NCBI GenBank assembly: GCA_946811185.2
Contig: OX328102.1
Coordinates: 50,631,619 to 50,695,618, forward strand
Reading direction: 5' to 3'
Length of the DNA: 64,000 nucleotides
Origin: Hippopus hippopus
Taxonomy: Eukaryota > Mollusca > Bivalvia > Cardiida > Cardiidae
Positions 13,911 through 64,000 of this stretch are shown here, piece after piece. Position numbers and translations under genes: made by a program. The first letter of the stretch is position 1, and every line of letters starts with the position of its first letter. The notes beneath the pieces were generated by a model. The model was not told the origin of the DNA. It saw nothing but the letters and a program-made list of their open reading frames with translations, and did not search any database.

Positions 13911-14247
13911 ATTATCTCCCGCTAGATGGCATTCTACAAATACACATCTATCTAATTTTGGCATTCTGGGTACAGAACCGGACTACTTTTCAAAACAACA
14001 ACCGTTACTTTGTATTTAAAAATGAAATAATCGTTTACTCAATAAAACGCTACCTGGTGCGATTCATTCAGCTATGATCGGCTAGCATGTAATCTATGCA
14101 TCGGCCATTCATTAAAACAGCCTCTACATGCTTGGGTAATAGGCTAATAGCTTCGGTATAAGCCGTACTTTTCCCAAGTATTCAGGGATGGGTGATGCGT
14201 CATAGCAGACAGGTCGAATCTTCGAAGACTATGACATGCGTAGACAA
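13911..14247 (+). repeat. Dispersed repeat E, copy 1
   Basis: About 337 bp highly similar to 60786-61120 in the same orientation (attatctcccgctagatggc to gaagactatgacatgcgtag). No ORF and no clear terminal repeats; class unknown. Confidence 0.9.
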
Positions 14248-17940: not shown

Positions 17941-17966
17941 GTTCTGTAGAATACATGTAGTTCTTT

Positions 17967-45795: not shown

Positions 45796-45897
45796 AGCAT
45801 ATAGCACAAAACTGTTTCAATTGGTTATATTTTCAGCCGTCGAAAGATTTGTGTTTTATGTTTTGCACTGAAAGACTATAACTATCTGAATACAAAG

Positions 45898-46656
45898 ATG
45901 GCCGACAAACGGATGCGCTGGAAAGGACGATTTGAGTTTGTTTTTGCTTCTTTTGGCTACACGATTGGACTTGGTAACCTGTGGCGATTTCCACAGAAGT
46001 GTTATTCTAACGGAGGCGGTGTTTTTCTGATACCCTACCTGCTTTGTGTCGTACTTTGCACAATTCCGACACTGTTTCTGGAATTCAGTCTAGGGCAGAT
46101 CACATCCGAGGGCTGCATAAAGGTGTGGAAATTCTCACCGCTGATTCAAGGCGTTGGTTTGGCGATTTGGTTCAACCTACTTATGTGCGTCATCTACTAC
46201 AATGTTCTCCTCATGTACGCATTGTACTACATGATGGTGTCTTTTATCAGTATCGGTGCAGATCTACCCTGGTCGCATTGCAGAGCAGAGGACAACTGGA
46301 GTTCCGAACAATGTCGATCACCGGTGGTCATCGATAGGGACAAAAGTACCCCGACTGAGGTCAACCAAGCCATGGCAAAACTCATGAACGAGACTTGTAT
46401 CTCTGACCTAGGAACCAAACTTGGGGTAACACCGTATTCGTTATCAGTCCAAGACTTTGAAAACAGTTTTTCGTCATGCAAGGTGGAGTTTTTCACTCCC
46501 GAGGAGGAATATTGGACAAGGCTCGTCCTTGGGGTCCATAAATCTGGCGGCTTCGATGATCTTGGGGCAATTCAAGGTCGCAATGTGATAATGTTATTGG
46601 CTGTGTGGATGATCGTTTACTACTGCTGTATACGTGGAATACGCTCCATCGCAAAG
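45898..46656 (+). CDS. SLC6-family sodium/chloride-dependent transporter, exon 1 (N-terminus to TM5 start)
   Basis: Plasma-membrane symporter that uses Na+ and Cl- gradients to import a small amine or amino acid. The ATG lies in a good context (aagatggcc), and its 253 codons begin with a short N-terminus (MADKRMRWKGRFEFVFASFG) that fits family alignment directly before TM1. TM1 has GLGNLWRFP, TM2 FLEFSLGQITSEG, TM3 MCVIYYNVLLMYALYYM. The large EL2 loop follows, with the paired cysteines HCRAEDNWSSEQC and sequons NWS and NET. An unusual feature is FPQK where most members have FPY. The exon ends at AAG (46656) before the donor GTACAA. The frame continues 17 codons into the intron and stops. Substrate unknown. 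A single exon for TM1-4 is large for this gene family. Confidence 0.9.
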
Positions 46657-46664
46657 GTACAAAG

Positions 46665-46928
46665 GAGCTTTGCTCTGACAAAAGGGGGCTTGATGAATCA
46701 ACTTTAGGCATCATACCAATCAAGCCATCTTATAATTATGGATCCATAAAATCCATTTGTAGAACAACCGACAGAATCATGAGATACACTGGTCCTTTGA
46801 CATGCAGAAAATTGACCAAAAGCAAAAGGCTTCGACCCAGGTCAGCCTGCGCGGACTTCGCAGGCTAACCTAGATCAATTCTTTTTGCAGATACATTAAA
46901 CCCCCTTTTTTCACATAGCATGGTTCAA
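46665..46928 (+). repeat. Family A MITE eight bases after the exon 1 donor
   Basis: Ends agctttgctctgacaaaagg and ccccctttttt cacatagca; centre ccaggtcagcctgcgcgg / cgcaggctaacctag. It starts directly behind the 5' splice site of the transporter intron. Confidence 0.88.
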
Positions 46929-47034
46929 ATTAACCTGCTAAATAAGTTAAATGCAAAACTTCCCAGCCAATAGTAAAAAATACCCAAAATATTATGTAAC
47001 GGAGTTATTAATTTGAGAAAATATCTCTTTATCG

Positions 47035-47102
47035 AAGATAGTAGATCAAAGATCAGACTGCACATTCTATGCAGTCTGGTCTTAATCTGCATTATCCGCA
47101 AA
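47035..47102. repeat. Family C palindrome (intronic)
   Basis: gtagatcaaagatcagactg pairs with cagtctggtcttaatctgc. Confidence 0.78.
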
Positions 47103-47164
47103 AGGTCACTGAGTCGCGCTTAGCAGCCTAAGGGTTAATATCACATAAAACGTTTTTCTGCCGA

Positions 47165-47312
47165 ATTAATTATTTACCACGCGGCAAAAATTTAAACTCA
47201 TCCAAATTCAAAGCTGCTGCAGATCACAAAATGGAATGTGGTTCTAATGACGAGCTTGATCTCTGGACCGGTAGAAAATATTGTGTAAAAAGAAGAAAAT
47301 GCTGGTTTTGCA
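47165..47312 (+). repeat. Family B MITE (partial, intronic)
   Basis: Arm ttatttaccacgcggcaaaa and half hairpin gtaaaaagaagaaaatgctg. Confidence 0.68.
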
Positions 47313-47924
47313 ACAACGGGTATATACAGCATTCGCCTGTAGAGTCCTTTTACGACGTATATGGCAATTCTTTTTTAACGGACAGATTTTTTTAAAACTT
47401 TGCACATACAAAGCTCATCATGTCGCTAGAAGATTGCAGTAAAAAAAGATGTGGGTCACCTTGCTCGTTTCTGAGAAATTTGCCTTTGAAAAAGGTATAT
47501 ACAGTTCCGAAATTCAGCTTATTGGATTTGGAGCTCCTTTCTTTAATAGTCAGTTAAACATGAAAATTACAGGAAAATATACAAATATACATCATTTTAA
47601 TGAAAATTCATATATTTTTGCACAAAAAATATATTATAAAAGCCTGGTTTTGAGCATGGTAAATGTACAAATATGCATGTTATATATAGACCATTGAGTT
47701 AAAAAGGGTGATAATTTGATCGAATTAAGGGTTAATCTTTAAAAGATACATACTTTCTAACGGACAGATTTTTGTTAAACTTTCCACACTTATAGTATTT
47801 ATAATTCTAAACAATAACAAAAAATAAAAATGGCACCTATCCGCGCTTATTTCGTCAGAAAACAAGGTTGAAGGTCACTGGAAGTTATTTTGTCAAGGAA
47901 AAAAATAGGATAAAAGCTCAGTAG

Positions 47925-47998
47925 ACATGGTGGGAAAAGGAGAAATTGCTCAATAGGACCGATTTCTCCTTTTCCAACAATAATTTTCAAAGCGGAAA
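47925..47998. repeat. Family B hairpin core (intronic)
   Basis: gggaaaaggagaaattgctc / ccgatttctccttttccaac. Confidence 0.78.
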
Positions 47999-48327
47999 CA
48001 GCTATACTTCCACAGCTTTAAATTTCCTGCCTTTGTTTTCTTGTTTGGTGTGTAACGCCATGTCAGCAGCATTTTAATCATTTTACGGTGACAGTTCAAA
48101 GATCCATTTTTTTCTCTTCACCAATACTACCCGATGAAAGTGCTACTTGTTTCAGTGCACCAATAGTATTACCATTATGTGCAAAAAATACATAGGTGCA
48201 CTTTTGATTCAATATCCACGACAAAAATACATGCGCAGTAGGATGCGCGCGAACATTTGTCACATACGGCGTTAAACTGAGAATACTATGTCCCTCTAAG
48301 AGACAGTGTAATACATCTAACAATTCT

Positions 48328-48508
48328 AATAAACCCATTTTGGCTAATAACCGACTGAATCGTTATAAGACCGGTCCTTGGACATGCAGAAAATTTACCA
48401 ATAGCAAAAAGTTTCGACCCACGTCAGCCTGCGCGAACTGTGTGGGCTGACATGGTCGATACTTGTTGCAGTTGCATTAAACTCCCTTTGCACAGAGCAT
48501 GGATGATA
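48328..48508 (+). repeat. Family A MITE, 5'-truncated (intronic)
   Basis: Retains ttggacatgcagaaaattta, centre acgtcagcctgcgcg / gtgggctgacatgg and right end tccctttgcacagagcatgg. Confidence 0.78.
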
Positions 48509-49617
48509 TACAATTACATTCAGCGATCACAAATTTCATTTTGTGAAATTAAGAGTTTTAGACTTTAATACCATGCTCTTTTCTCATGTTTTGAAACTGA
48601 GTTGCTTAACACGGAACTGTAGCTATGCAATACGAAATTTTCAAATGTCCAGGGCTTTTTGCGTTGAATAATTATCTTCGCTTGAGTTTACACATTCTTA
48701 AACTAGTGTTAAAGATAAGATCGCTAGTCTATTGCCATTCAGATTGACTTAGATTCGAATGTAAACAAAAAGCCCCACAGTCGCCAAACAATGCCCCACA
48801 GAAAATAATTCTCCCGGTTGGAAATCGTAATTCTGTTTAATACGACAATGTTGACACGAACTACAAAATCTCAACCACTCCAATATGAACAAGGTCTACT
48901 TACAAAGTCGTATGTACCTAGACAGAACAAGATGTCATGGATAGGACACAATTTGTTTGCTGATATAATATAAATTAAGTCTCTGACCTACGCAAATCAG
49001 ACCCATCTTTACTTATCCCAACGCAACCCTTTTTCACCCTCGTGTTTAAAGCGGGTGTTGTAGGTCTCGTCGAGCTATGAGTTTGTCCAACCGATACGAA
49101 AGTGAAAAGGCATGCAAACTTCATCTAAAAGTGAACTCTAAACGGTATTAAAATGCCAAATCGTTTGAGTCGAACCGGGTCGAACATGATAACCGGATTG
49201 GATTATTTTTCTTCAAACTTGTATGGAACAATCAAGTTTTGTCTTTACCATGGCCGCTTATTCCACATTCGCTGGTCTTTCAGTACTTTCAGTATTTTGA
49301 TTTAATAATGTGCATGAAGTTGAATATCCAGGTCCGTATTCACAATAAAAAAAATGTAATTTCAAAGTAGGTTCTGAAGGGCTGAACCAATTTTTTTAAC
49401 CAATCAAAAGTTGCGTTACTTTCTGAATCTAGAATAAGACTACGTATGAAACGAAAAATGATTGGTGAATACGGGCACGGTGTTTCTCTCTTTTAAAGCA
49501 CTTGGAGGTTTTGAGTCAACTACTGTGACAGTTTGTTGCTTTCCTAATTTGTTTTCAACCCTATCCTTAGTGTGTACAAACCAAATAACAAGTCGACTGG
49601 AATAAATTTTATTTCAG

Positions 49618-50436
49618 GTTGTGTATATTACGGCGACGTTCCCGTTTGCTTTACTCTTTATTTTGCTTCTTCGTGGGGTGACACTAGATGGTCATTATGA
49701 AGGGATAAAATACTACATGAAACCTGACTGGGCAAAGCTGTCAGATCTACAAATATGGTCCAGTGGAGCCACACAAGCAATTTACTCACTGGGCGTGGCT
49801 TTTGGCACTCAGATAAGTCTTGCAAGTCATAACCAAGTCAACAATAACGTCCTGAGAGACGCCATTCTTATCGGCATCGTTAACTCCTGCATCAGTTTCT
49901 TTGGCGGCTTTGTCATATTTTCCTTTTTGGGCCACGCGTCTGAGAGGCTGAACAAACCAATCGATCAAATCTTTGACCATGGACCTGGTATTCTATTTAT
50001 ATCCTATGTTCAAGGGATTTCCCAACTTCCAGCAGCCTCGTTTTGGTCGTTTCTATTTTTTCTAACGGTATTCACGTTTGGCCTCGACTCCGAGTTTATG
50101 ATGGTATGGACGTTATACGATAGCATTGAAGACTTATTCCCAACAATTTTCAAGAAACGCGGAAAATGGATTTTGATAGCTGCCTGCCTGATTTTGTTCG
50201 TGTTGAGCCTTCCCCATGTGACGGAAGGCGGCATCCATCTTGTAATGCTCATGGAGCGGTATACCTCGGATTTTACCATTGTCCTTTTCGTCATACTGGA
50301 AATGGTTGCAGTTTGTTGGATATACGGTATCAATCGCTTCATCAAGCAAGTAGAAGGAATTATAGGGAAAAAGCCGAAAGCGTTTTGGTGGTTTTGGAAA
50401 TTTACATGGATGGTCAGCTGTCCGGCATATGCTGTG
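49618..50436 (+). CDS. SLC6-family transporter, exon 2 (TM5 to TM10)
   Basis: 273 codons in phase 0 from the acceptor at 49616-49617. It starts VVYITATFPFALLFILLLRG, the conserved TM5 opening. TM6 has IYSLGVAFGTQISLASHNQ followed by NNNVLRDA (usual family form SLGxGxG ... SYNxFxNNxxRDA), TM8 has FTFGLDSEFMMVWTLYD with the Asp-Ser pair of the second sodium site, and the TM10 segment ends WKFTWMVSC. The donor gtaaga after GTG at 50436 is strong; without splicing the frame stops six codons later. TM11-12 and the C-terminus (about 80-110 residues) must be on another exon that I could not find before 64000. It is either outside the window, very diverged, or lost. Confidence 0.9.
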
Positions 50437-50511
50437 GTAAGATTTACTTTTTAAACTCAATATTAATTCTACGAGTATACTCCCAATCCCAACTTTTGAT
50501 GAGCCTGTTCA

Positions 50512-50642
50512 GGAAGGTCTTTGAAATAATTTTGGGAAAAGGAGAAATTGCAACAATGTTTTCGATCCTTCTTATCATTTAAGCCACATTTAATTTGTCG
50601 CCTGTAAACATTTCAGAATTTAGAACAGTTTTCTCATCTCTC
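50512..50642 (-). repeat. Family B MITE, partial
   Basis: Half hairpin gggaaaaggagaaattgcaa and an arm fragment tttaatttgtcgcctgtaaac, shortly after the transporter exon. Confidence 0.68.
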
Positions 50643-51391
50643 GAATAGTAAAATACCTCACAGCGCCTTGTTGATTTACTGTGGCCTTCCTTAGACTACG
50701 ACTTCGTTTTCCCCCCATAGACGTTTCATCCTCAGTGAGAGCAGAATATTAGATATCAGGGTCTGTATTTATAAACCATTCTTAAGAACATTCTTAATCA
50801 AATTATAGATTTAGAAAATAACACAACTAGGGGTCTCCTCTCGACCATAATTATCGAGAACCACAATAGTCGGACTTTTTTGCTACACAAATTCTTAAAA
50901 TAGGAAAACTTTTCCACTTTTAGACCCAGACTTTACATTGAAAAGTCAAAATTATTGAGATCTAATTTCGAGTTTCTATGTAAACTTGATTAAAAAGTGA
51001 AAACGTCTCAGTTTTTGACATGAACATAGTTGTCTTGAAGTACAATTGCAGCAGTAAAAAAAAAAACGTTAATACTTTTCCCTTTCTCGACCAAGTTTTT
51101 ACATAAGAAAAGTCGAAATTAGTGAGAAGTAGTTTCAGCTTTCTCTGGGTAAACAACTAGTTAGAAAAAGAAGATTTCTTTTATCCTTTTCAGTAGTTTT
51201 TAGAAATTTAACATTTAATAATATACTTTTATTTCATGCTTTTCGGTAGTTTATCGAGAAATAATGGTGGATTATGGTTTAATATTTCATGGTTACGACC
51301 AGTGAAAAATACCGATTTTATATTTAACTCTTCAATTAAACGCAGAAACAATACTTCCCCGAACTAGTTACCAGGGTAGGCAGCGCGTGAC
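50643..51391. other. Stretch without recognised gene
   Basis: Searched for a further transporter exon without success. Nothing else recognised. Confidence 0.4.
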
Positions 51392-51613
51392 TTTAAGGTC
51401 TACGACCCCTAACTCTCATATTAAAAGACTGAAGCTGTCGAGATTGGCCGAATAGCCTTCACGAAAACGTCGATTTTACACGATATTTACCGATGAGTTA
51501 GTGAGTCTACGGCCCTTAACTCTCATATTAAAAGACGGAAGCTGCCGAGATTGGCCGAATAGTCCTTACGAAAACGTCGATGTTTACCGATGGTAGGGGC
51601 CGTAGACCTTAAA
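51392..51613. repeat. Inverted-repeat unit with internal 107-bp duplication
   Basis: tttaaggtctacgacccct at 51392 is inverted at 51592-51613 (ggggccgtagaccttaaa; 20 of 22 bases pair). Between them a segment starting aactctcatattaaaagac occurs twice, 107 bp apart. Confidence 0.8.
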
Positions 51614-51806
51614 CCAGAGAGAAATATGACGTAATTTACGCACATTTACCCTACTGTTTTCGCGCTACACGTAATATTGTAATGCGTTCTAAAGGGGGGG
51701 GGGGTACGCCACGGGGAATTTACCGAAAACAACCGTACTGGATTTTGACACAAGTCCAAACAGAAAAGGGGTTAGAAGCATGAATTGAATACAATATTTG
51801 TTTTTA

Positions 51807-52205
51807 ATGCCCCCGATTTTTTTTCAGGGGCATATAGTTTTTGTTTAGTCCGTCCGTCCGTTTTCGTGTCCTGGCCATAACTTTTTTTCCTTTTTCCCAA
51901 TTACTCAATTTCAAAACAATTTTGCACAAATGTTAACCATATCGAGAAAATGTGTCATGTACAAAAGTCAAGTCCATAGGTTAAAGGTCAAGGTCACAGC
52001 AAGGTCAAATGTGTTCGGGGGTAAAATTCATGTCCGGGCCATAACTTTTTTCCCTATCATTCAATTTGAAAATAACTTGGCACAAATGTTAACTACGTGG
52101 AGACGATGTGTCATGCACAAGTCATGTCCGTAGTTTAAAGTTTAAGGTCACAGCAAGGTCAAGTGTGTTTGGAGGAGTAATTTTCCTGTCCGGCCTGTAA
52201 CTTGT
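51807..52205 (+). repeat. GTCC-type element, truncated, with about 160-bp x 2.3 repeats
   Basis: Starts atgcccccga...tcaggggcat (hairpin), then a short GTCC microsatellite and units beginning tgtcctggccataacttttt (51866, 52029, 52186). The 3' terminal hairpin is not seen. Confidence 0.72.
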
Positions 52206-52647
52206 TTAATTATGAATGAATTTCAGTATAACTTTGCAGAATTGTTGACCACACAAAGACAATGTGTCGCGCAAAAGAACCATCTCGTGAAAAGCAAAGG
52301 CCATATTTTCACTCGTGGCTTGGCCACTCGTGAAAAGATAGCCCTTGCTTTTCATTCGATGAAAGAAATTTCGATCATACACCGAAACAGACAATTATCC
52401 TCTATAGGTTGAAGTTTTTGACTCATCAATAACAGTTACAGGATAAAAATTTTTAGACTTTGTATGAGAAAGGTTTACCTAGAAATGCAAAAAAGTTTAG
52501 CTCGTATATGTACCTATAATATCTCATAATATTGTAAAGGATTTTTTTCCCTGCAATTTTAGCAGCAGTTTTGTTAATCTATCTGTTTGTAATATCATTA
52601 AGCTTTTTTTATTTGTTTATTTTATTTCATTTATTTTTACTCTTGTT

Positions 52648-52872
52648 CATCCTTTACAAACGGTCCCGTGTTTTAAAGTCCCCGAGAAAAGAGGCTTTTG
52701 AAAACATTGTTGGTAAAGGAGAAAATGCTGGTAACTAGCATTTTCTTCGTTATCCCACAATGTTTTATATCCTTTTAAAGTGACAGTCTATTTCTTGAAT
52801 CATATTAATTTGTGGCCTATTGATACTTTCGATTTGTAATTGTCTAAAATTTTGTTGTATGGTAATAAGTAA
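52648..52872 (-). repeat. Family B MITE (complete)
   Basis: tcctttacaaacggtcccgt to ttgtatggtaataag, with hairpin ggagaaaatgctggtaacta gcattttcttcg. Confidence 0.85.
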
Positions 52873-53027
52873 AGATGAATATACACGAATATACAGGAAA
52901 ATAATAATTAAACACAAAATCCGGCCATGTTATATACATGTAACACTGTATTGCGTGAGGAAAAATATAAACAACAATTTCACTATTTTAAACTCTTTCC
53001 TTGCGTAGTGTGACTCAAGACGCTTTA

Positions 53028-53095
53028 GCAGACTGTGTAGATCAATATCAGACTTCACAGTACGTGCAGTCTGATCTTGTATCTACACAGTCCCA
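53028..53095. repeat. Family C palindrome
   Basis: gactgtgtagatcaatatca pairs with the right half ending cttgtatctacacagtcc. Confidence 0.83.
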
Positions 53096-53194
53096 TAAGA
53101 TGAAGTTTTTCCGACTAAAAATGCCATGAAATCGCTATATAATTTGGGGGTGGGGGTGGGTTCAACCATCAACTATGGAAAATTAACTTGCAGT

Positions 53195-53610
53195 TTACCT
53201 CTTTACCAAAAGGTAAAACTTTAAACTTGTCTAAATTGACAGCATAAGCAGATGTCGAAATACATGGGACTCAAAAACAACTAGGCAAAGTTTGAGCCGA
53301 ATATCTTTAGTACGGGCGAAAGACCACGCCAAAGGCGCGGAATGAAGACCGCCTATAGGTTACACGTATATAGGACATCTCAACCCTGAAGGACAATTTT
53401 TCGGCCATTTTGAATTTGCCCACATGGAGAAAAAGTTGGACTGTATTCGAATATCAGCTTCCTTGACAACAGAAGATTCATTTAACACAAGGAGGATTCA
53501 ACACAGTCTAAATCCACAAGATTAAATTGCAATCACTTTTTGTTAAAATTTTTATAAATCTACACTTTTTCGCCTTTATTTGCAAATCTTAACAAGAAAA
53601 GTTGAACAAA
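53195..53610. other. Family B arm then unassigned sequence
   Basis: ctctttaccaaaaggtaaaac at 53200 is a family B arm; 53280-53610 shows nothing recognised and does not look like a continuation of the polymerase gene. Confidence 0.4.
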
Positions 53611-53950
53611 AACAAGAGGGCCATGATGGCCCTGAAGTCGCTCACCTGAGTCTTTTGACCAAACATGACCCATTTTTAATCTCTTTCGAGATATAATGAC
53701 AAACATTCTATCAAGCTTTCATAATTATTGGACTGAAAATTTGGCCTCTAGCTTGTACACAAGCTTTTTCTAGAATTTCTGTCAGTGACCTACTTTTTAG
53801 CCAAACATAGCTCATTTTCCCATTGTAGATATTATCAAAACAAAGATTCTGACCACCTTTCATAAGTATTGGAAAGAAAATGTGACCTCTAGGGCCTGCA
53901 CAAGGTTTTTCCAAGATTTGACCTAGTGACCTAGTTTTTGACCTGATATG
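53611..53950 (-). repeat. GTCC-type element 3' part (reverse), abutting the viral element
   Basis: caagagggccatgatggccc followed by tcgctcacctgagtcttttg is the reverse complement of the usual 3' end. Two diverged units with gaccaccttt / gaaagaaaatgtgacct follow. It stops at 53950, directly where the polymerase gene is cut. Confidence 0.82.
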
Positions 53951-55459
53951 CTGCGCCTCTATACTTACCTGTAAAATGGCAATGATTTCTTACTTTGTAA
54001 TTAGCATAAGTAAATTCTTTATCACAAATCAAACAATGTGTTTTTTGTTCGTGTTTTGCTTTTTCCTTTTTTGTAATTATCATTTGCCTATTTTGTTGAA
54101 AGTAGTTTTGATGAATTTCTCTTATATCACCTCTTAGCCAGTTTATAAAAACCTCCTCTGCTTCTTCTCCAGTATAACTTCTTTCTATAGGCGCACAAAC
54201 ATCACCATCAAAACATTTTATAAGGTAGTAAAAGCTACAAGGTATGTGCTTTTGGCGTTGTATAGTGTAACTATTTTCTGGGTTTGGCTGGCATGTGTGT
54301 ATAGGTTCTAAAATACTTTCAAAGTCAGCGTATACAGCAAAGGGGACACGGAGTTTTCTAGCATGGTTTTAAAATTTAGCATTGTACCTCTTTCTGGCAT
54401 TTCTAAAGAAACAGGTTCATGATTGTTACAGTATTGCATATGCTTTTCTAAAAGTTTTTTACTACCAAAATGATTCATACAACGCTTAAAAAATTCTATA
54501 CCACCATTGTTAGTTGCTTGTGTTCTCATCGAACCGTTATAGTTCTTTATTAAAGCATAGTGTGTTTCTTCTAAATTTTTAATAAAAAGCAGGTCAATAT
54601 GATTACTTTTTTCATCTTTTGTAAGCCTAAAAGGGTAAATACATTTTTTTATTTTGTCAAACCCATAAACGTTTACACTAATTTCTGAATTTTGTTTCTC
54701 AAACTTATCTGTATCTTTAAAAGATACAGGATACATTATTCCCTCCATGTTCACAGTATGCTCCCTTGCTTGCAAAGCCTTGTCAACTCTTTCTGGATGG
54801 TTTTCTTTAGGATTTAGCGCTCTTAAAACACACCATAAAAAGCATTTGTTATCTTGATTTTTCATGTTGATAACTGCTATTTTATTTACAATCCACTTTG
54901 GTAAAGGTAAATGGCCTCTAGCACGTAAAGGATCATAAACAGTTGTATGTAGTTCTAACTACACTATACTTGCAAAAGTAAAACCGCTACCTTCTCTTTG
55001 AAACAAAGCTAACTTTTCCAAAATTTCATCTATCATATATTGCAACAATGTGTCTATACCTTCCTCATTCAAGTTTACTAATTGCCTAGAGTGGAAAGCA
55101 TATTCCCTCTCTGAGTTAGGGTCTGTGGGCAAATGTAATCTACACCTAAGTACTAACTTTACCTTTGTTTGTAGATTTCTTCGAAGAGTGTTTTGGAGAA
55201 CATCCCTCGTTTCTGTAAAAAACATAGGGGGTGTATAACCTTCTCTACCCTCTATAACATGTTGAGTAGCATACCCTCTAAATGCGGATTGAGCAACTCT
55301 AATCTCAAACGGTTGCCTTGGGGGGTAATTTTCTCTAACATGTTCAACAATTTCATCCAACACTTGTGGTATCTGTGTTGGCTCTACATTACCAGTTAGC
55401 CAATTCCTAAAATCAGTTATTCTTCTTTGTATGGGTTCTGGACAGCTCAGGCTAGTCAT
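53951..55459 (-). pseudogene. Protein-primed DNA polymerase B (Polinton type), N-terminal part, interrupted and truncated
   Basis: Replicative polymerase of self-synthesising elements. The ATG at 55459 opens 166 codons ending FQREGSGFTFASIV, then an in-frame TAG (54959-54961). The same frame continues through a YDPLRARGHLPLP segment into 54865-54308 with CFLWCVLRALNPKENHPERV, a Cys/His pair region and EMPERGT. A frame change near 54360 moves the next part to another frame, where the exonuclease motif YADFES (near 54330) and CLICDKEF ... HCHFTGKYRG are visible. The gene is cut at 53951 by a repeat, so the polymerase palm and thumb are missing. The order of blocks matches DNA_pol_B_2-type proteins of invertebrate Polintons. 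Three independent defects make it nonfunctional. Confidence 0.85.
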
Positions 55460-55527
55460 CTTGCTCCAGAGTAAACATTAGACGCAGCTTGTCTAGCTAC
55501 ATTACCAATATTACGTATGAAATTCAT
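55456..55527 (-). CDS. 23-codon basic ORF overlapping the polymerase start (ATGA)
   Basis: ATG at 55525-55527, TGA at 55456-55458. The TGA shares ATGA with the polymerase ATG at 55457-55459. The peptide starts MNFIRNIGNVARQ and ends in YSGAR, with four Arg and no acidic residues. It could be a small virion core-type peptide, a leader ORF controlling polymerase translation, or chance. Too short for a firm call. Confidence 0.35.
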   Translation of the reverse strand: MNFIRNIGNVARQAASNVYSGAR

Positions 55528-55651
55528 TTTTTAAATGGTAAAAAAAACTTAAACTATTTTATTTTATTTCAAAAATTTTATTATGATTATATCATAATAA
55601 AATTACTGGATTTAATCCTATATTTATTTTTCCAAACTCTTCCATTCCAGT
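55528..55651. promoter_or_regulatory. AT-rich gap between the SAP-like and polymerase genes
   Basis: 124 bp of very AT-rich sequence containing ttattatgattatatcataa (a palindrome-like block around 55577-55600). Possible promoter of the downstream minus-strand genes; inference only. Confidence 0.3.
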
Positions 55652-55939
55652 TTAAATCGTTTGAGGGCAGTGTTCTATAAATTTACCTGCCATGTAAATC
55701 GGTGGAAAATTTTTTATTTCCCCTGTTTCAACATCCTCTAAACTAACTTTTCTAGGATTTTTCATAATAGTTTTTAATCTATCAAACCTAGGATCTTTTT
55801 TCTTTTCTGATTTCGGTGACTCCTCTGGTAACAAACCATGTTCTTTTACCAACTCAACTAACTGCTTTTTATCCCAGTAAGAGCAAAATTTTGTTTTATT
55901 TTCTTTAAGAATTTTTTTTAAATCTGAAATCGTTATCAT
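55652..55939 (-). CDS. Small SAP-like DNA-binding protein of the viral element
   Basis: Intact 95-codon ORF from ATG 55939. Residues 1-35 (MITISDLKKILKENKTKFCS, then WDKKQLVELVKEHGLL) have the helix-turn-helix spacing of SAP-type DNA-binding motifs. The middle is Lys-rich (PKSEKKKDPRFDRLK), and the C-terminal part is unassigned. It starts 21 bp after the stop of the capsid-like gene, in the same orientation, so the two are probably co-expressed. Role in genome or virion organisation is inference. Confidence 0.6.
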   Translation of the reverse strand: MITISDLKKILKENKTKFCSYWDKKQLVELVKEHGLLPEESPKSEKKKDPRFDRLKTIMKNPRKVSLEDVETGEIKNFPPIYMAGKFIEHCPQTI

Positions 55940-55960
55940 CTTTTATAAAAAGAAAAAATC

Positions 55961-57241
55961 TTAATACACCACACTCATTTTATTTCCATCAGGCTGAAAG
56001 TTTATTAACCTATCACTAATAATAACAGCATATGCCTCTGTGGCTACGGGCACATTTGCGTTAAAATTTACCTTGATTTGGATATCAGTAACAGAATATT
56101 TTAACTTTTCACTCTGCTTGGAAACATCGAACAAAAACAAAGGATAAAGGGTTTTATAATCCGAAGGGGAAATGTTAGGGTTTGATACCAACTCATCCAT
56201 GCTATAGAACTTAGATCTAAATAGTGCAGCATCACCATAAGCTCTACTAAATTGCTGCCTAGGGAATGAAAGATTGTAGTCAACCGCGGGGCATCTAGTG
56301 GCATTTAACATAACATAAATATTTTTAACGTCTATGTTGTCAAATATGGATGGATTTTGCTCTTGGTTGCCATTTTTATCAGTCTGAAAGCCAACAATGA
56401 TAAAACGTGGCACCTCGGGAGATGATTTAACGGAAAGTCTCCAGGTAAATGTTGTTGACTGAGGAACTGAGATAGAGTCGCATTGTAGCATTCTATATCC
56501 AACTGGGAATTTTTCTTTTTTCTCGATGAGTTTATAAAGTTCTAGCTTCTCCTTATCCGCAGGTAGAACGTGTGGCATAAACCATGATATTTTATCCAAC
56601 GTAATTTTACCAGCATCAACACCGTTAGCTCTAAAGATCGCATCTTCATCATCATTTCTCGTCAAGGTGAGAGTTTGCTTCATTCCATACAAGACTTTAT
56701 CATAGTCTTTGCAAAAACCAAATATATGTTTTAATGGAACTCTGAAACTAAATGTACCTTTTGGATCGGAATTATTAATGATGTAGTGTTTTCTTATATT
56801 CCAACCTGTGTTTTGGGCTTGTGCCGCGCGCGTTGTATCCTTATACCACAATTGGTTTAACCCCTGTGATTTGGAAAAATCATCTGGATATTTTAACAAC
56901 CCAAGCATTGTAGTAGCCTGACCAGGATGTGTTATGGATTGAATTTCCTGACCGGAAAGTTGATACCTAATATTTTTAAAAAGATGTATGAGGGCGTTGT
57001 TTGTTAGAGAAACGTTGTCAGCATTTGCGTAATCTGCTCCATTAGCCTTTGTTAAGCGGCCTTCTATAAGTAAATAAGTTTCACTAGGATGCGTAAAAAT
57101 ATCTTGGGTTTCAATGCTAATCCTAATATCTCCTCCTGAGTTGCTGAGATTTGCACCTGTGATTGTTTCATACTCAAGGAGCTCATACTCATCAATACTA
57201 TCGACTTTCAAAATTGGTACGGTAATATTTAGAATACTCAT
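55961..57241 (-). CDS. Capsid-like protein of the viral element (probable double jelly-roll MCP), intact
   Basis: The only long undamaged gene in the element: 426 codons from ATG 57241 to a stop at 55961. No signal peptide or membrane segment; many short beta-prone stretches rich in Thr/Ser/Asn/Ile and few Cys. Characteristic blocks include IETQDIFTHPSETYLLIEGR, LFKNIRYQLSGQEIQS, LLKYPDDFSKSQGLNQLWY, VPLKHIFGF and FPRQQFSRAYGD. I recognise this type from Polinton-like elements in other invertebrate genomes, where its place and size suit a major capsid protein; 426 residues is within the range of double jelly-roll capsids. The fold is not proven from sequence. Upstream is a 75-bp AT-rich gap that may carry its promoter. 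Intactness among broken neighbours suggests either late integration or retained function. Confidence 0.65.
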   Translation of the reverse strand: MSILNITVPILKVDSIDEYELLEYETITGANLSNSGGDIRISIETQDIFTHPSETYLLIEGRLTKANGADYANADNVSLTNNALIHLFKNIRYQLSGQEIQSITHPGQATTMLGLLKYPDDFSKSQGLNQLWYKDTTRAAQAQNTGWNIRKHYIINNSDPKGTFSFRVPLKHIFGFCKDYDKVLYGMKQTLTLTRNDDEDAIFRANGVDAGKITLDKISWFMPHVLPADKEKLELYKLIEKKEKFPVGYRMLQCDSISVPQSTTFTWRLSVKSSPEVPRFIIVGFQTDKNGNQEQNPSIFDNIDVKNIYVMLNATRCPAVDYNLSFPRQQFSRAYGDAALFRSKFYSMDELVSNPNISPSDYKTLYPLFLFDVSKQSEKLKYSVTDIQIKVNFNANVPVATEAYAVIISDRLINFQPDGNKMSVVY

Positions 57242-57316
57242 TTTTTATTACTATTATTATAATTTAAATTATATTAATTTAACTTATACTACTTTAATAT
57301 TACTCCCATCTTTATT
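57242..57316 (-). promoter_or_regulatory. AT-rich spacer upstream of the capsid-like gene
   Basis: About 90 % A+T in 57242-57300 (ttattactattattataatt and similar). Candidate promoter for the capsid-like and SAP-like genes; no specific motif identified. Confidence 0.3.
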
Positions 57317-57517
57317 CTAAGTCCATAACCAGAGCTGGGGAAAAGACTTATACACGTCGTTGACAAACACACTTTTAAGTACAATGTTTTCCAGTTGATC
57401 TTTTTGGTTATCTGGGTTCTTTTTAGGGTAAATCCTGTTTCCACACACAATTCTTATTGGGGAAATACCCTCTTTGTCTAAATACTTATTTACCCCTTTC
57501 TCAATCTCTTTCATCAT
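57317..57517 (-). CDS. Small ORF of the viral element, function unknown
   Basis: The frame is open from 57586, but the first ATG is at 57517, giving 66 codons (MMKEIEKGVNKYLDKEG ... VNDVYKSFPQLWLWT). The charged N-terminal half may be helical. It overlaps nothing downstream and ends 75 bp before the capsid-like ATG. No family recognised. The open frame before the ATG may be the end of a longer broken version. Confidence 0.45.
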   Translation of the reverse strand: MMKEIEKGVNKYLDKEGISPIRIVCGNRIYPKKNPDNQKDQLENIVLKSVFVNDVYKSFPQLWLWT

Positions 57518-57560
57518 GTTTACTTTTTTAGGGGATAACTTTACAATAGCTTTTTGGTAA

Positions 57561-57985
57561 TTATATCGTGTGAATACCAGACCCACTGTTTAATTTTTTA
57601 ACTAAGTCTTGAATAGCAATTGCACTTCCATCTATTAAGGTGTTAATGTTTTGTGTCGTAGGTGTACTTTGCGCTGTAGGTGTGCAGTATGTATTTGTAA
57701 AATTTTTCGTGATTTTGGTGTCAAAGCTTTTTCAACTAACCTCTTTCCTGCGTCTACAGCAGCACTCTTTCCAGCCTCTACAGCTTTTTTTGCTCCTTCC
57801 TTAGCAACACTCTTTCCCACATCAAAGGCAGAACATGCAATTTGTTTAGCTGCGCTACTAGTAAAAAGTTTTGTAAAAAAGTTAGCGATGCTGTCAAAAA
57901 TTCCAGAACCACCATATGAATACTTTCTTTTAAATCCACGGTTTTTAGGTGTAATAATTTCTTTACGTAAAGATTGAACAACCAC
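57561..57985 (-). pseudogene. Minor-capsid-like protein (Gly/Ala/Lys-rich, pX/pVI-like), frameshifted
   Basis: The 116-codon frame 57985-57635 has a basic start (LRKEIITPKNRGFKRKYSYG), the segment GGSGIFDSIANFFTKLF (amphipathic, hydrophobic), then SAAKQIACSAFDVGKSVAK and several AGKSAAV/GKR helix repeats. Near 57700 the frame shifts; the adjacent frame continues to a TAA at 57561 with a Thr/Gln-rich tail. There is no in-frame ATG at the expected start: the first codons are ACG-GTG-GTT, so either GTG is used, the start was lost by mutation, or it lies further upstream opposite the fibre gene. Such membrane-active or core-type small proteins accompany capsid genes in Polinton-like and adenovirus-like elements; the match is by style, not by alignment. 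Confidence 0.5.
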
Positions 57986-58004
57986 CGTTACCGGTTCTAT
58001 AGAT
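57986..58004. promoter_or_regulatory. 19-bp divergent gap between two element genes
   Basis: ttaccggttctatagat separates the minus-strand capsid-accessory gene from the plus-strand fibre-like ATG (58005). This is too short for two separate promoters, so the signals must lie inside the genes or a start is misplaced. Confidence 0.3.
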
Positions 58005-58825
58005 ATGGCTGGTAATACATTAACAAAGGTTAGTAATCCGGTAAATCCTCAAGACGTCGCGACTAAAAATTACGTGGACACCAACTCGGGGCTGTTGAAT
58101 GAAAACGGAGGATACCATATCACAGGGTATTTAAACATGGGTTTTAATCCGATAAGAAACGTTATGGAGCCAACAGAACCGAGTGAAGCTGCTACTAAAA
58201 GTTATGTGGATAGGAGTGGCAAAGCAATAGTGCAGCAACAAGACGGCACTTTTTCCGCTGTTGCAGATATAAATGTTCGGGGGTATACTTTAACGAATCT
58301 TATAGATCCCGCAAACCCGCAAGACGTTGCAACTACAAAAAATACGTAGATGTTGCTAATCGAGCCTTTGTTTACGGAGCTGGAGGGTAAATAGCAGTTG
58401 GTGACGTTTCTATGGGTGGGCGGAGAATTTACAACGTCGGAACACCTTTAGAAAACCAACAAGCTGCAAATAAGTTTTACTTAGACGTTAATATGGAAAA
58501 CGTTGAAAGTTATTCGGGGAGCGGTGCAATATTAAAGAAACTCAGAAGGAACTTTTTGTGCCGTTAGCGATATCGACATGAATGGCAACGGTTGTTAAAG
58601 ATGACCCTAATGTACCAGAAGAGGTAAAAGTTAATATTGTGGTAAACGGAGTAGAGCAGGTTCACTACTCTATTATAAAAAAAGAAAGATGAGATTTGCA
58701 GCTGTGTGGTTTTTCCTACACCACTCGAAATAAAGCAATGCGACATCATAAACTTTATTTCAAGATCAGACAACCCTAACGTGCGTCACGCTTACATATC
58801 TATTTTGATAGAGTTAGACTTGTGA
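58005..58825 (+). pseudogene. Phage tail-fibre-like protein with ATKxYVD repeats, broken
   Basis: The ATG at 58005 begins 114 codons with three repeats of about 44 residues (LTKVSNPVNPQDVATKNYVD, then PTEPSEAATKSYVD, then LTNLIDPANPQDVATT). In tailed phages this repeat type lies in trimeric fibre shafts. The frame breaks at about 58335-58345 (an A-rich run); a fourth repeat (NVGTPLENQQAANKFYLD) continues in another frame after a TAA at 58388. Further shifts follow, and a last open piece ends with TGA at 58823-58825. A virion attachment fibre is the likely original role; that is inference. It is the only plus-strand gene of the element. Confidence 0.75.
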
Positions 58826-58827
58826 AA

Positions 58828-58856
58828 AATATTTAACACGTAAAGTGTTAAATATT
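58828..58856 (+). terminator. Perfect 12-bp hairpin after the fibre gene
   Basis: aatatttaacac, loop gtaaa, gtgttaaatatt: 12 of 12 pairs, starting 3 bp after the last stop codon of the fibre-like gene. It may act as a 3'-end or termination signal as in compact viral genomes; function is inference. Confidence 0.5.
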
Positions 58857-58962
58857 GAAAAAGGATCAGTTTTCACCACGTGACATAGTATTTCACAACT
58901 TTGTTTAATATTTCACAATGCATACTCATATAATATCACTTTAGACTGGACTTTTGAGGATG

Positions 58963-59474
58963 ATGGTAGTATATTATGATATTAATGATTTTTTTACTTT
59001 GTTTTTTCTAAAAATTGAAATGTATATGGTAATTGTATAAAATAGGATTTTTATTTATGATAATAATAAAGCGGTCTTACTTCCTTGTTGTATTTTAATT
59101 TAGTAAGAATGTTATTACTAACAAAATGGTAACCTCTGGCGTGGCCTTACAGCCCGTAAGTTAATACCAAAAAATGATAACCTCTGGCGAGCCCTAACAG
59201 CCCGTAAGTTAATACCAAAAACTGATAACCTCTGGTGAGGCCTAACAGCCAGTAAGTTAATACCAAACACTAACATAAAAATGGTAACCTCTGGCGAGGC
59301 TTAACAGCCCGTAAGTTAATACCTTATCAATACATTTCTTACGCATTAAAACCACAATGTTGTAAGGCTGCTGTTTAAAAACAGAATAAGTATTTTATAC
59401 AATTATTGTACACGTTAAACATTTTTAAAAAAAACAGGGTAAAAATATTTGTTGATATTATAATATACTACCAT
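58963..59474. repeat. Inverted repeat pair enclosing a tandem-repeat block
   Basis: atggtagtatattatgatat at 58963 is inverted at 59453-59474 (20 of 22 bases pair). Inside lie the 48-bp tandem repeats and AT-rich DNA without an ORF. Confidence 0.75.
59123..59323 (+). repeat. Tandem repeat, about 48 bp x 4, in the viral element
   Basis: taacctctggcgaggcctaa and cagcccgtaagttaatacc recur with starts of taacctctgg at 59130, 59178, 59226 and 59285. Units differ at several positions. Confidence 0.93.
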
Positions 59475-59752
59475 TTTCGGTTTTGATGGTGCTAAGTGAA
59501 AGCGATAGGGTTGTGTACTAAATAATACTTCCTCTTTCGCTTTCGATGGGGAGGTAAAAAAAATTGCTTATTTAATGGTGGTGTCATGACTCACCTTACT
59601 TCATCTATACTTTCTCTTATGTTAAGATGTAGAAAACGGAGTTAAAGGTTATTCTTAAGCTAGTTTAACGTTTTTCAACATTATTTAGCTAGGTTAAAAA
59701 TATCAAAATTTATCTTTAGTCTTATAAATTATAACTTTTTCTAAGTTATAAT
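59475..59752. other. Noncoding stretch of the viral element
   Basis: Contains tttcgctttcgatgggg near 59538, partly echoing gtgaaagcgataggg at 59497 in inverted form. No gene recognised. Confidence 0.35.
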
Positions 59753-60472
59753 TTAGTTATTTTCTTCCTGCTCTTCATCAGAGCTTGACTCTTCATCTAA
59801 AACACTAGGTAAAATTTCCTTTTGAGGTGGGTTTACATTTTCTTCTACTTTTACTGATATAACTTTAATTTGTATTGTTTCAATATTTTGATTATAAAAA
59901 AATTCCTTCTATTTTTAAAATACAAACCACTTTTCAAGGGGTTTTTGTATATAAAAGAGGATCTACTTTTTCATAATTACTTTCTTCATCTTTTTGCAAA
60001 AAATCGGTATTTATTACAACTTTACCATTACTATCTTTTTTATCTAAAAACTTTGGATAAAATTTGGGCGACTCTCCATCATTATATTTTACAATTTCAA
60101 TTCCGCTAAGATTTCTAATTTTTTTTTTAACTCTTTCGCTTTTTGATTTTGAAAAAAGTTCGTTAACTCATCCATATCTTTTTTAAATTCTTTTTCTTTT
60201 TTAGTGGGTTCTTGTAGGTTATAAAAACAAACTAAAGATAAAGCGTATCCAGTTGGTTTTTTCTGTTTTTTATCTTCATTAGTAATAACAACATATGAAA
60301 ACAAAGGTGGAGTATGTATATATAGTGGTCCTTTTTTACCAGTAGAGTATTCATACTCAAGTGGTATTTTAATGTAATTATATGTTGAGTTTGTATATGT
60401 GTTGTTTAAATTTAGAGAAAGCTTTTCTTTACAAAGCTTCCCCGATTTAATATAATTCGTTTTTGTTGCCAT
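59753..60472 (-). pseudogene. Acidic-tailed protein of the viral element (possible ssDNA-binding protein), frameshifted
   Basis: The ATG at 60472 opens 127 codons (MATKTNYIKSGKLCKEKLSL ... LYIHTPPLFSYVVITNED ... GYALSLVCFYNLQEPTKKEK). The frame ends at 60089, but the neighbouring frame continues with GIEIVKYNDGESPKFYPKFL. After two more shifts (near 60000 and 59930) it reaches SSSDEEQEENN and TAA at 59753-59755. Full length would be about 235 residues. A beta-rich body with a conserved GPLYI-TP-LFSY block and a very acidic tail is reminiscent of viral single-strand DNA-binding proteins, but I do not recognise a named family. At least three frame breaks. Confidence 0.55.
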
Positions 60473-60480
60473 TATATTAT

Positions 60481-60572
60481 AAATTATTATTTCTTAAGCC
60501 ATTTTTTCAAATTTTTTTAATGAAAATTATAAACCTTTTTTGAGGTTTTTAAATATAGATTTTTTTAGATTT

Positions 60573-60606
<34 letters not shown>

Positions 60607-60785
60607 CTTTTTTTTGGATTTTTGGATTTTTTTGGATTTTTTGGATTTTTGGATATGCGTGGCATTTTTGACACAGATCGACCGAATACAAAAATTACAC
60701 CACATTTTGGACAAAATGGCTCAAATCGGGTAAATTATAACCTATTTTCGTCGTCTATCTATGTTCAGAGATATGTCTTTTTGTC
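60481..60785. other. AT-rich end region with T29 and GGATTTTT repeats
   Basis: 29 T residues at 60578-60606, then T/GG-rich tgg atttttggattttttt repeats to 60650. This may mark the right border of the viral element or the tail of another repeat. Confidence 0.45.
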
Positions 60786-61120
60786 ATTATCTCCCGTTAG
60801 ATGGCATTCTACAAATACACATCTTTCTAATTTGGGCATTCTGGGTATAGAACCGGACTACTTTTCAAAACAACCGTTAGTTTGAATTTCAAAATGAAAT
60901 AAACGTTTACTCAAAAAAAACGCTACCTGGTGCGATTCAGTCAGCTATGATCGGCTAGCATGTAACCTATGCACCGGCCATTTATTAAAACAGCCCCTAC
61001 ATGCTTGGGTAATAGGCTAATAGCTTCGGTGTAAGCCCTACGTTTCCCTAATATTCGGGGGTGGGTGATGAGTCATAGCAGACAGGTCGAATCTTCGAAG
61101 AGTATGACATGCGCAGACAA
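60786..61120 (+). repeat. Dispersed repeat E, copy 2
   Basis: Same as 13911-14247 with about 90 % identity by eye; noncoding. Confidence 0.9.
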
Positions 61121-62380
61121 CGGTCTTTTTGTATTTTTGCTACTCTTCGAAAACGGAGGTAATAAGTTGTAAATGTTCGGGAACAACTGTCAATATCGTT
61201 GTCGTCTGAAATAAACCGATTTTCTTGCATTAAAAAAGTACATACGAAATTCTAGCCGTGTATTCATGCATCGGTATGCACGTCACCATCGTAAATAAAC
61301 TGCTTCGCTGTGGTGCTTGTCAAAATTTATTGAAATTGTTTCATATTCCAGGCCGAAAAACGATGAAATTAATAATAGCAAAATAAGAGAGGAATTGCCC
61401 CGATTGTCATGTAGTGATTTAGATCTACACATACCAAAGAAAACCATTACCTTACTAGCTTCCTATATCTAAATATAAAGTAACTTTCGCCATATTAACA
61501 AACTCTTCGGACCCGTAGGAAGCAAAATATGAAAGGAAGGGGAGGGGACGGGGCATAACGACAGACCTCAGTGTCACTGACCTTCTACCTAGATGTCGGT
61601 GTGCACATTGATTGTTTACAACGGAGAATTCCAGGAAATCCTCTAACAGTTTAATTCTTATTTGACTACATCTACACATAAAAATATTAATTCACTGTTA
61701 TTTTTCTAATCAAGTAAGATCTAGAGATAAAGATTTTTGTTGACACTTTTAGTAACACTGGTAAAATTATTTGGGGCGGGGGGAGGGGGAAACTTTTTCA
61801 GTCTGGGAAAAAAGGAAAATCGCAATATAATTTCACAAATATCTACTATAATATTGTATACACGAAAGAACGGTATAGAACAGTCAATCATAAAAATGAG
61901 AGTCCTTAAATGGTTTGGAGTAAAAAAAATATCCTCCATGTGTTCACATACATACAAATGACACATTACTTACGGCACATTGATATTTGAACATTTCTCA
62001 TGACTCTGGAACTCACTCACATAGGGCATATACGTATAGAAGAGGAAAATATGATTTTTCAGCAGCATCAAAAACATGATACGATCATACGCAATAAACT
62101 TTTACAAACACAATCTTTTTTTGAAGTTAACAGCCTCAGGGGCATAAAAATTGTTTTAACTGCAGTTGAAAAGGGATGACAATATAAATTTGAATGTGGG
62201 TCAGTGTCAAAAACAACACTATTATTTAAGTTACTTATTTTTGTAACATACCATTACTAATTATTATATACATGTAACGTTTGTAATTAACTGAGCAAAT
62301 ATCTGATCAAATAACCAAATTTGTCAAAAACATGCACGGAAACGTACAAATTGGTTTAATGGTACCCCTAGAATGCAATT
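61121..62380. other. Stretch without recognised gene
   Basis: Only homopolymer-rich spots (ggggcggggggagggggaaac near 61772). Nothing coding recognised. Confidence 0.4.
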
Positions 62381-62577
62381 TAACCCTTTATCAAACAATC
62401 CAGAAAACATTGTTGGAAAAGGAGAAAATTCATATTTAGCATTTTCTCCTTTTCCCACAATAATTTTTAACCCATCAAAAAGAGTAATCATCTTTTTATC
62501 ACCAGTTAACTTGTCTACAAATGTTTTCAGTTTGGTCCAGTCTAGAATTTCGTCTTTTGGTAAAGTGTTAAATAGAT
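62381..62577 (-). repeat. Family B palindromic MITE (complete)
   Basis: taaccctttatcaaacaatc to gtcttttggtaaagtgtta, with hairpin ggaaaaggagaaaattcat / agcattttctccttttccc. Confidence 0.9.
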
Positions 62578-62627
62578 AAAAAGGACAATAGCAATTTTAT
62601 TTTCAAGGTATCTGCCATAATAAAAAA

Positions 62628-62692
62628 AAGGACAGTATAGATCACATTCTTTGCAGTCTGATCTTGATCTACACTGTCTATCATAGGGAGTC
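62628..62692. repeat. Family C palindrome, left half shortened
   Basis: gacagtatagatcacattct joined to ttgcagtctgatcttgatct acactgtc. Confidence 0.78.
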
Positions 62693-63984
62693 TGATCTTG
62701 AGCTAATTGTCCATTAAAAGGGAATATCTAGCTAATTGGACATTTGCAACTAACTTTTGCATAAACTACTCTTTTACTTGGAGATTATTCGATAGGATAT
62801 GGCGGTATGTTTTCCTATACTTAAGTGTTTTAAGTAGCTTGGGTTGAAAAGAAAAAGATTTATTGCACAAATGATATATTCAAGGATCTTTTGCCAATTA
62901 TGACACACAGTTGACTATTACACACTATTACACAAAAGTTCAATTGATGGAATGTAAATTCTGCAATGGCTCTCCATTTGAACCCCTCGTGACACCAAAG
63001 GACCAGCCTGGAGAAAAATTGGTCTGTTACTGTCCAGACATCATTGTACTGTACTGAATGCGTTTGTTTTTACCTATTCAAAATAAAAAACAAGAAAATA
63101 TTGATGCATAACATCAATGGCGCCGCAAATCAGTTGTTTCTGAAATAGGGCACATTACAGCGGGTTATACCGAATTCTCCAATCAAGTTACTCTATAAGT
63201 CCAGTTTACCGAACTCGTGACCCAGTCTTTCTGAAAGTTGCCAAGTTATTACTGGACATTCGGTCTGGTAAAAAAAAATTACCGAATGTTTTTTTTACCA
63301 GACCCAAAATATCGATAAATTAAAATAACTACATGAAATATTTTTGAATTTATAAGGAATAACAAAATGAATATCAATGGGGGTAGATTTACATGTACAG
63401 TATCACGGACCTTTATAATACATCGAGAATCCCTGGCCGTATTCAAAACTCAACAATCTCTTGTATAAAACTCAATTTCAGACAATTGTCATCTTCAGAC
63501 TGAAAATCTACAGAAAATTCATGAGTCTTTACTGGGTTTTCCCTTGACTTTCTGATTTGGGGGTCATTTGACCCCCTTCAAATGAAGTAGAGAAGGCACA
63601 AATAAAAATTTTGGGGGTCATTAAGAAAATTTGAGGGTCCAAATTCAAAGAAACAGGGGGTCAGGGAAAACCATGTCTTTATCAGGACCAAATAAGTTAA
63701 AGGTTTACATATTTCTTCCTCAATGAAGTCTTCTTCACTGATGTATAAGGCAATCCTCGGGTTCTCATGACAGCAGTCGATCTTTTTTGTACAGAAGGAA
63801 AGATCGCCAAATAAATGTCGCGTAATTTCATTAGACACTATATTTCCAACTGATCAATGAAACATTATCATACAAAGTATGACGTCATTCATTCTTACGA
63901 CGATTTCATTGGTCTAGGAGGCTGAACAGTGTACGAGAAAAACCTATGTCATTCTAAAATTAGCACATGACCTTTCGATGTTAT
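62693..63984. other. Stretch without recognised gene
   Basis: Contains an imperfect inverted pair around 63270-63305 (tctggtaaaaaaaaattaccga / cggt...ttttttaccaga). No ORF with recognisable similarity. Confidence 0.4.
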
Positions 63985-64000
63985 TAGCTCCACTGGCCGA
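63985..64000 (+). repeat. Start of a GTCC-type element cut by the window end
   Basis: agctccactggccga after tt is identical to the first 15 bases of the copy at 25763. Confidence 0.75.

What the first reader, a model, noticed from the sequence alone, without database searches (positions are those of the whole stretch)
53951..60480. Decaying Polinton/adintovirus-like element with one intact capsid-like gene
The block contains pPolB N-terminal motifs (CFLWCVLRALNP, YADFES), a 426-codon intact capsid-like ORF, small DNA-binding and minor-capsid-like genes and a fibre-like gene. Polymerase, fibre, minor-capsid and acidic-tail genes are all broken, yet the capsid-like and SAP-like genes are open. 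Retained capsid genes among decayed neighbours could reflect recent insertion, chance or use by the host. Integrase, ATPase and protease are absent.
Basis: partly seen in the sequence, partly recalled or inferred. Interest (0 to 1): 0.88.

Follow-up and report, generated by a model that had tools for sequence, protein, structure and literature searches.

The report
Decayed Polinton-like virus fragment, intact capsid gene
A broken piece of an old virus-like mobile element sits in an animal genome, most likely a bivalve's; its main capsid gene happens to be unbroken, which by itself is ordinary for this very common kind of element.

Summary
The core observation holds. [quoted passage not shown] all 50 PDB rows listed are capsid or scaffold proteins of that fold). 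Thousands of relatives exist; the four listed hits that name an organism are one scallop. The gene lies in a 6.5-kb remnant with the start of a protein-primed polymerase, a weakly SAP/HeH-like frame, a phage-type fibre on the other strand and a DUF2738 gene with an acidic tail.

Corrections: the 166-codon ORF is the terminal-protein end of the polymerase, parted by one in-frame stop. No minor-capsid match, integrase, ATPase, protease or rest of the polymerase was found.

Best reading: a truncated, endogenous, dead Polinton-like virus. Adintovirus membership is not shown. Host use of the capsid is not supported: lesions elsewhere predict about 3-4 in this gene, so chance of none is about 2-11%, before allowing for picking the best gene. 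DNA of relatives, orthologous loci and expression data, which would decide, were out of reach. New member of a known kind; modest interest.

The parts
53618..53950 (.). repeat (internal near-duplicate 53692-53798 / 53833-53939), taken for host sequence, that abuts and ends the polymerase remnant
   Evidence: two short matches (42 and 39 nt) elsewhere in the window
53951..55527 (-). N-terminal part of a protein-primed DNA polymerase (terminal-protein region, OTU-like region, start of an endonuclease-VII-like stretch): frame change near the N-terminus, in-frame stop 54959-54961, frame change about 54345-54377, then cut at 53951
   Evidence: relatives P0121, P0202, P0212, P0233 carry both ORFs in one protein; P0156, P0189, P0210 continue beyond the cut
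55652..55939 (-). open 95-codon frame, weak HeH/LEM (SAP-like) match; completeness against relatives not tested
   Evidence: PF12949, E 0.01, below its cut-off
55961..57241 (-). [quoted passage not shown]
57317..57985 (-). small frames (89 and 116 codons) in at least two reading frames, the second rich in Gly/Ser/Ala/Lys; no family match above cut-off; minor virion protein by position only
57963..58826 (+). remnant of a phage-type fibre gene: stalk repeats and C-terminal head, first ~28 residues missing, at least four frame changes and one stop (58388-58390)
58963..59474 (.). imperfect inverted repeat (84 aligned nt, 80% alike) enclosing four copies of a 48-nt unit (59123-59325); nature unknown
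   Evidence: no Rfam match
59753..60472 (-). DUF2738 gene with acidic C-terminal tail, at least two frame changes; possible single-strand DNA-binding protein (inference)
60578..60900 (.). T tract at the right edge and, from 60785, a repeat with another copy (92% over 119 nt) at 13910-14028

Best explanation
The block is the truncated, endogenous remnant of a Polinton-like double-stranded DNA virus that integrated into the germ line of an animal, most likely a bivalve. In life the element would have primed replication of its linear genome with the terminal-protein domain of its own polymerase, released that domain with its OTU-type protease domain, packed the genome in a capsid of double jelly-roll trimers and attached to cells by a trimeric fibre. 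After insertion it lost its ends, repeats came to lie against it, and stops and frame changes accumulated in polymerase, fibre and DUF2738 genes. The capsid gene is open because the insertion is not very old and chance spared it. Shown: the families of capsid, polymerase N-part and fibre, the lesions, the truncation of the polymerase. Inferred: integration route, age, host, and every functional step.
Against: The capsid model is middling (pLDDT 62, pTM 0.45); rows covering one jelly roll fit at about 4 A, rows covering both at about 25 A, and TM-scores normalised by the query are 0.19-0.30 in the viral library, so the fold of the whole rests on Pfam and the pattern of matches. The shared contigs are all 379 kb or longer and prove the same genomes, not the same element. 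Six scans of viral contigs and one of prokaryotic genome contigs gave no capsid or polymerase relative. No long terminal repeats were seen. Lesion counts give 0.017 for an untouched capsid gene, 0.061 without the fibre, which leaves some room for retention.
Confidence: 0.85

Rival explanations
1. The capsid gene has been kept by the host, for example as an antiviral interfering capsid or a packaging protein, while the rest of the element decayed.
For: Capsid and the adjacent SAP-like frame are open beside ten lesions, counted by eye, in 3151 bp of other element genes; Poisson chance 0.017 for the capsid, 0.007 with the SAP-like frame. Strongly conserved capsid positions are broken within the range of relatives (7 of 202, rank 26 of 121), while the polymerase piece ranks first (9 of 51, of 121).
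Against: The count is post hoc and best of several genes; other ways of counting give 0.033, and 0.061-0.108 without the fibre. The polymerase piece includes about 14 residues behind a frame change, and its family evolves faster (median terminal branch 0.0945 against 0.0355), so the contrast is confounded. The window capsid has lost a tyrosine kept in 120 of 120 relatives, has 13 private residues against a median of 4 (maximum 25) and a terminal branch that ranks 7 of 121. No expression, orthology or dN/dS data.
Confidence: 0.06
2. The fragment is part of a more complete, young element whose missing genes lie outside the window or were misassembled; it may belong to the adintoviruses proper.
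For: The capsid is full length (119 of 120 listed relatives are 416-437 aa) and within the family's range of conservation; an OTU-bearing polymerase is part of the adintovirus definition in PMC11071296 (passages).
Against: The polymerase breaks off at 53951 where a repeat begins, and nothing of its remainder was found in the left flank: no tblastn match of the 360 relatives there and no family match in the ORFs scanned. The right side after 60473 likewise holds no element gene in the 15 ORFs scanned.
Confidence: 0.06
3. The fibre gene is an unrelated phage-derived or contaminating piece rather than part of the element.
For: The matching records in the phage collection are six phage genomes, annotated as tail fibres, 36-41% identical, and 31 viral-contig loci match mainly the stalk repeats; the one opened (L003) looks like a bacteriophage.
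Against: 611 of 797 candidates, 67 of 120 listed being 397-398-aa proteins, several in large clusters, with contig lengths shared with the capsid and polymerase lists; phage-like fibres are already reported in polinton-like viruses (PMC12220804, passages).
Confidence: 0.04

Closest known systems
Polintons/Mavericks of animals (Polintoviricetes)
   Same: Double jelly-roll capsid gene; polymerase with terminal-protein and OTU-like N-terminal regions (PMC11071308, parts 1-2 of 6); many degraded copies beside few intact ones in vertebrates (PMC8097293, passages). Hydra's Polinton capsid protein had PBCV-1 VP54 as its only significant hit (PMC4028283, passage), and cnidarian capsids fall outside the main Polinton/adintovirus cluster (PMC10120064, passage).
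   Different: Here no integrase, ATPase, protease, penton or terminal repeats were found; 6.5 kb instead of 12.7-24.6 kb for intact vertebrate elements.
Adintoviruses / MELD viruses
   Same: Animal association, OTU-bearing polymerase, adenovirus-like capsid fold; structural matches include one MELD virus protein and one adintovirus penton.
   Different: The definition in PMC11071296 asks for a BLAST-recognisable hexon and an rve integrase (passages): the first could not be tested, the second was not found. Starrett et al. 2021 is not held and was not read.
Polinton-like viruses of protists
   Same: Phage-type fibre genes beside a double jelly-roll capsid (PMC12220804, passages).
   Different: Those mostly lack the polinton polymerase and integrase (PMC11071308); this one has the polymerase's N-terminal part.

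Membership tests
[quoted passage not shown]
   PF21738; fold matches; model mediocre
Polinton/Maverick | protein-primed family B polymerase with terminal-protein and OTU N-terminal domains | tested here: inconclusive
   N-terminal part found and aligned to one-protein relatives; catalytic polymerase domain lies beyond the cut and was not found
Polinton/Maverick | rve integrase | tested here: inconclusive
   none in 9 element ORFs and 29 of 34 flank ORFs >=60 aa; fragment is truncated
Polinton/Maverick | FtsK-type ATPase, cysteine protease, penton | tested here: inconclusive
   none found in the same scans; fragment is truncated
Polinton/Maverick | terminal inverted repeats and target-site duplication | tested here: inconclusive
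   among the 25 longest of 46 inverted pairs in 53500-61500 none is a long pair at both ends; the left end is lost to a repeat. Target duplication was not searched for separately
Adintovirus | hexon recognisable by BLASTP to adintovirus hexons | not testable with these tools
Adintovirus | rve integrase with chromodomain | tested here: inconclusive
   not found in the truncated fragment
Polinton-like virus (protist type) | phage-type fibre gene (reported in many, not strictly defining) | tested here: met
   Pfam Phage_T7_tail above cut-off in 4 of 6 relatives scanned

The most novel reading that the evidence does not exclude
The capsid gene, with its SAP-like neighbour, has been kept under selection by the host after the rest of the virus died, as a domesticated capsid, for instance one that poisons assembly of related infecting viruses.
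Probability: 0.05. Interest if true: 0.85.

Novelty: new member of a known kind. Interest (0 to 1): 0.3.

Why it matters
A search of the held papers for PF21738, 'DJR-like' and DUF2738 listed one paper, which only names DUF2738 in a table, so the combination may be little described; that is a lead for a systematic survey, not a claim of absence from print. If the open capsid gene were found conserved across species it would be a rare case of a domesticated DNA-virus capsid.

Tried and rejected
Search of the window's own assembly (genome search own) was sent eight times in the same form and never answered, so copy number, full-length relatives and flanking duplications in this genome are unknown.

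Relatives in viral contigs: capsid as a single sequence and as alignment A1, polymerase piece and alignment A2, the 48-nt repeat as an exact pattern: none. Fibre alignment A3 gave 31 loci out of 101 pattern matches; at E<=0.01 the capsid, terminal-protein, OTU-like, SAP-like and DUF2738 pieces and the fibre head alone had no tblastn match in any of the 31, and the one opened, L003, looks like a bacteriophage. Prokaryotic genome contigs with A1: none.

Conservation tests: private residues at conserved columns, 7 of 13 in the window against 251 of 574 pooled in relatives, do not discriminate; kept as uninformative. For the trees the capsid set kept all 121 rows; the polymerase set kept 119 of 121 (two relatives under 80% coverage dropped). 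Relatives used are only the 120 listed of 5181 and of 558.

Against the PDB by sequence: the capsid gave none and its profile one chance match, E 1.7; the polymerase profile's best matches are zinc-finger chains (E 1.4e-6 and 8e-5) and one acetyltransferase (8.5e-4), none an OTU or polymerase; the DUF2738 piece gave five matches at E 1.1-1.2. Single-strand DNA binding for DUF2738 is therefore my inference from the acidic tail and from recall.

Full report
What is there. The frame 55961-57241 on the minus strand is open for 426 codons, against 19 to 58 stops in the other five frames of the same bases. It matches Pfam PF21738, 'Double jelly roll-like domain', at 182 bits (cut-off 27) over the full profile. 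A search of 5.8 billion proteins scored 7994 candidates, those sharing most words, of which 5181 had E<=1e-3; the 120 listed are mostly 70-75% identical and 119 of them are 416-437 aa long. Four listed rows carry an organism name, all Ylistrum balloti, a scallop; of 108 distinct contig lengths 94 exceed 100 kb. The listed rows are therefore mostly pieces of animal-sized assemblies; a bivalve host for the window is likely but not shown. That the left-flank repeat looks molluscan is recalled, from no call.

The polymerase. The 166-codon ORF just upstream (54959-55459) is in the same frame, separated by one stop at 54959-54961. Relatives P0121, P0212 and P0233 carry both regions in one uninterrupted protein and P0202 aligns from 55462 to 54410 at 47% identity; so the two ORFs are one gene, the N-terminal part of a protein-primed polymerase. 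By PMC11071308 (parts 1 and 2 of 6 read, plus passages) this part holds the terminal protein and an OTU-like protease; in our alignment of 33 sequences Asp36 and Cys39 are invariant and His133 is nearly so. That the Asp-x-x-Cys pattern is OTU-like is recalled, and a profile search of solved structures did not return an OTU protease. There is a further frame change near the N-terminus and one at about 54345-54377 into the frame with YADFES, whose end is weakly endonuclease-VII-like (E 1.4e-4, just below cut-off). That frame runs to HCHFTGKYRGAA, where relatives P0156, P0189 and P0210 go on and the window changes to a repeat at 53951. Nothing of the rest was found in the left flank.

The fibre. 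On the plus strand 57963-58826 carries stalk repeats like those of phage tail fibres (PHROG 26630, E 2.7e-12; six phage records at 36-41%). With X at stops and only residues 1-119 scored, 611 of 797 candidates had E<=1e-3; 67 of the 120 listed are 397-398 aa, and listed clusters have up to 1991 members. Of six relatives scanned, four reach the Pfam cut-off for the phage T7 tail-fibre family. The nearest, P0241, is 75% identical and has 28 residues before the point where the window's match begins. The window's copy has at least four frame changes and a stop. Fibre genes of phage type are reported in polinton-like viruses; the paper that says so cites the adintovirus paper among earlier reports (PMC12220804, passages). 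The fibre is therefore not new in kind.

Other parts. 59753-60472 (-) matches DUF2738 (E 6.6e-10 for its first open piece) and ends in an acidic tail after two frame changes; a single-strand DNA-binding role is inference. 55652-55939 (-) is open and weakly HeH/LEM-like (E 0.01, below cut-off). 57317-57985 (-) holds small frames with no family match above cut-off: the 'minor capsid' label is not supported. Between fibre and DUF2738 lies an imperfect inverted repeat around four 48-nt units, unexplained.

Is the element complete? As far as tested, no. Of 34 ORFs of at least 60 aa in 47000-53950 and 60473-64000, 29 were scanned and gave no integrase, ATPase, protease, penton or polymerase match at E<=0.1; one of the other five is a host transporter exon and four that overlap it were not scanned; nor were shorter pieces. 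The left edge meets a repeat; at the right a T tract follows the DUF2738 gene and a repeat with another copy in the window starts at 60785. No long terminal repeats were seen among the pairs listed.

Does the open capsid gene mean anything? I counted by eye ten lesions in 3151 bp of polymerase, fibre and DUF2738 sequence, 3.2 per kb; 4.1 would be expected in the capsid gene, chance of none 0.017; without the lesion-rich fibre 0.061; conditional on all lesions falling elsewhere 0.033 and 0.108; with the SAP-like frame 0.007 and 0.018. This is post hoc. At protein level the capsid breaks 7 of 202 strongly conserved positions, rank 26 of 121, as relatives do, but it has lost a tyrosine present in 120 of 120 relatives, has 13 private residues against a median of 4, and its terminal branch is the seventh longest of 121. 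The polymerase piece ranks first on conserved positions (of 121) and on branch length (of 119), yet it carries about 14 out-of-frame residues and its family evolves faster, so the contrast is weak. [quoted passage not shown] Chance survival after a not very old insertion is the plain reading.

What could not be done. No animal genome was searchable: the genome search did not complete. Viral-contig scans gave no capsid or polymerase relative (loci checked). Linkage of capsid, polymerase and fibre in intact elements therefore rests on this window and on shared contig lengths: 23 between the listed capsid and polymerase rows, 16 between capsid and fibre, 7 in all three, of 108, 97 and 111 distinct lengths; the shared contigs are all 379 kb or longer, so they show shared genomes rather than shared elements. 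Paper searches were read as listings; passages, sections or abstracts were read only of the papers named above, of PMC11071296 (passages), PMC10120064 (passages), PMC4028283 (passages), PMC10294476 and PMC7642931 (passages) and PMC9683012 (abstract and outline).

Verdict. A truncated, decayed, endogenous Polinton-like virus with an intact double jelly-roll capsid gene; a new member of a known kind. Claims beyond that, adintovirus membership and host use, are not supported by what could be tested here.

Noticed in passing
58963-59474: Imperfect inverted repeat (about 80% over 84 aligned nt) with four copies of a 48-nt unit inside; could be a small non-autonomous transposon or a viral control region. 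No Rfam match and no exact match to the unit in viral contigs.
   Followed up: partly
45805-46704 and 49606-50451 (+): Two pieces of a sodium:neurotransmitter symporter (SNF, Pfam PF00209) upstream of the element, which lies downstream of this gene or in a late intron of it.
   Followed up: partly
2920-4362 (+): Single-frame glycosyltransferase 61 gene of 480 codons (PF04577, E 6e-13).
   Followed up: no
8350-11968 (+): Degenerate non-LTR retrotransposon: endonuclease matches and a weak RNase H match in 9549-11495, with neighbouring frames in other phases.
   Followed up: no
17801-19028 (-): Overlapping frames with recurring words (such as CCKNDDQREITQRQHEVELWFFRTALRIIATNTN), probably a tandem repeat of the host.
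   Followed up: no
60785-60900 and 13910-14028: Two copies of a repeat, 92% alike over 119 nt, one of them near the right edge of the viral block behind a T tract.
   Followed up: partly
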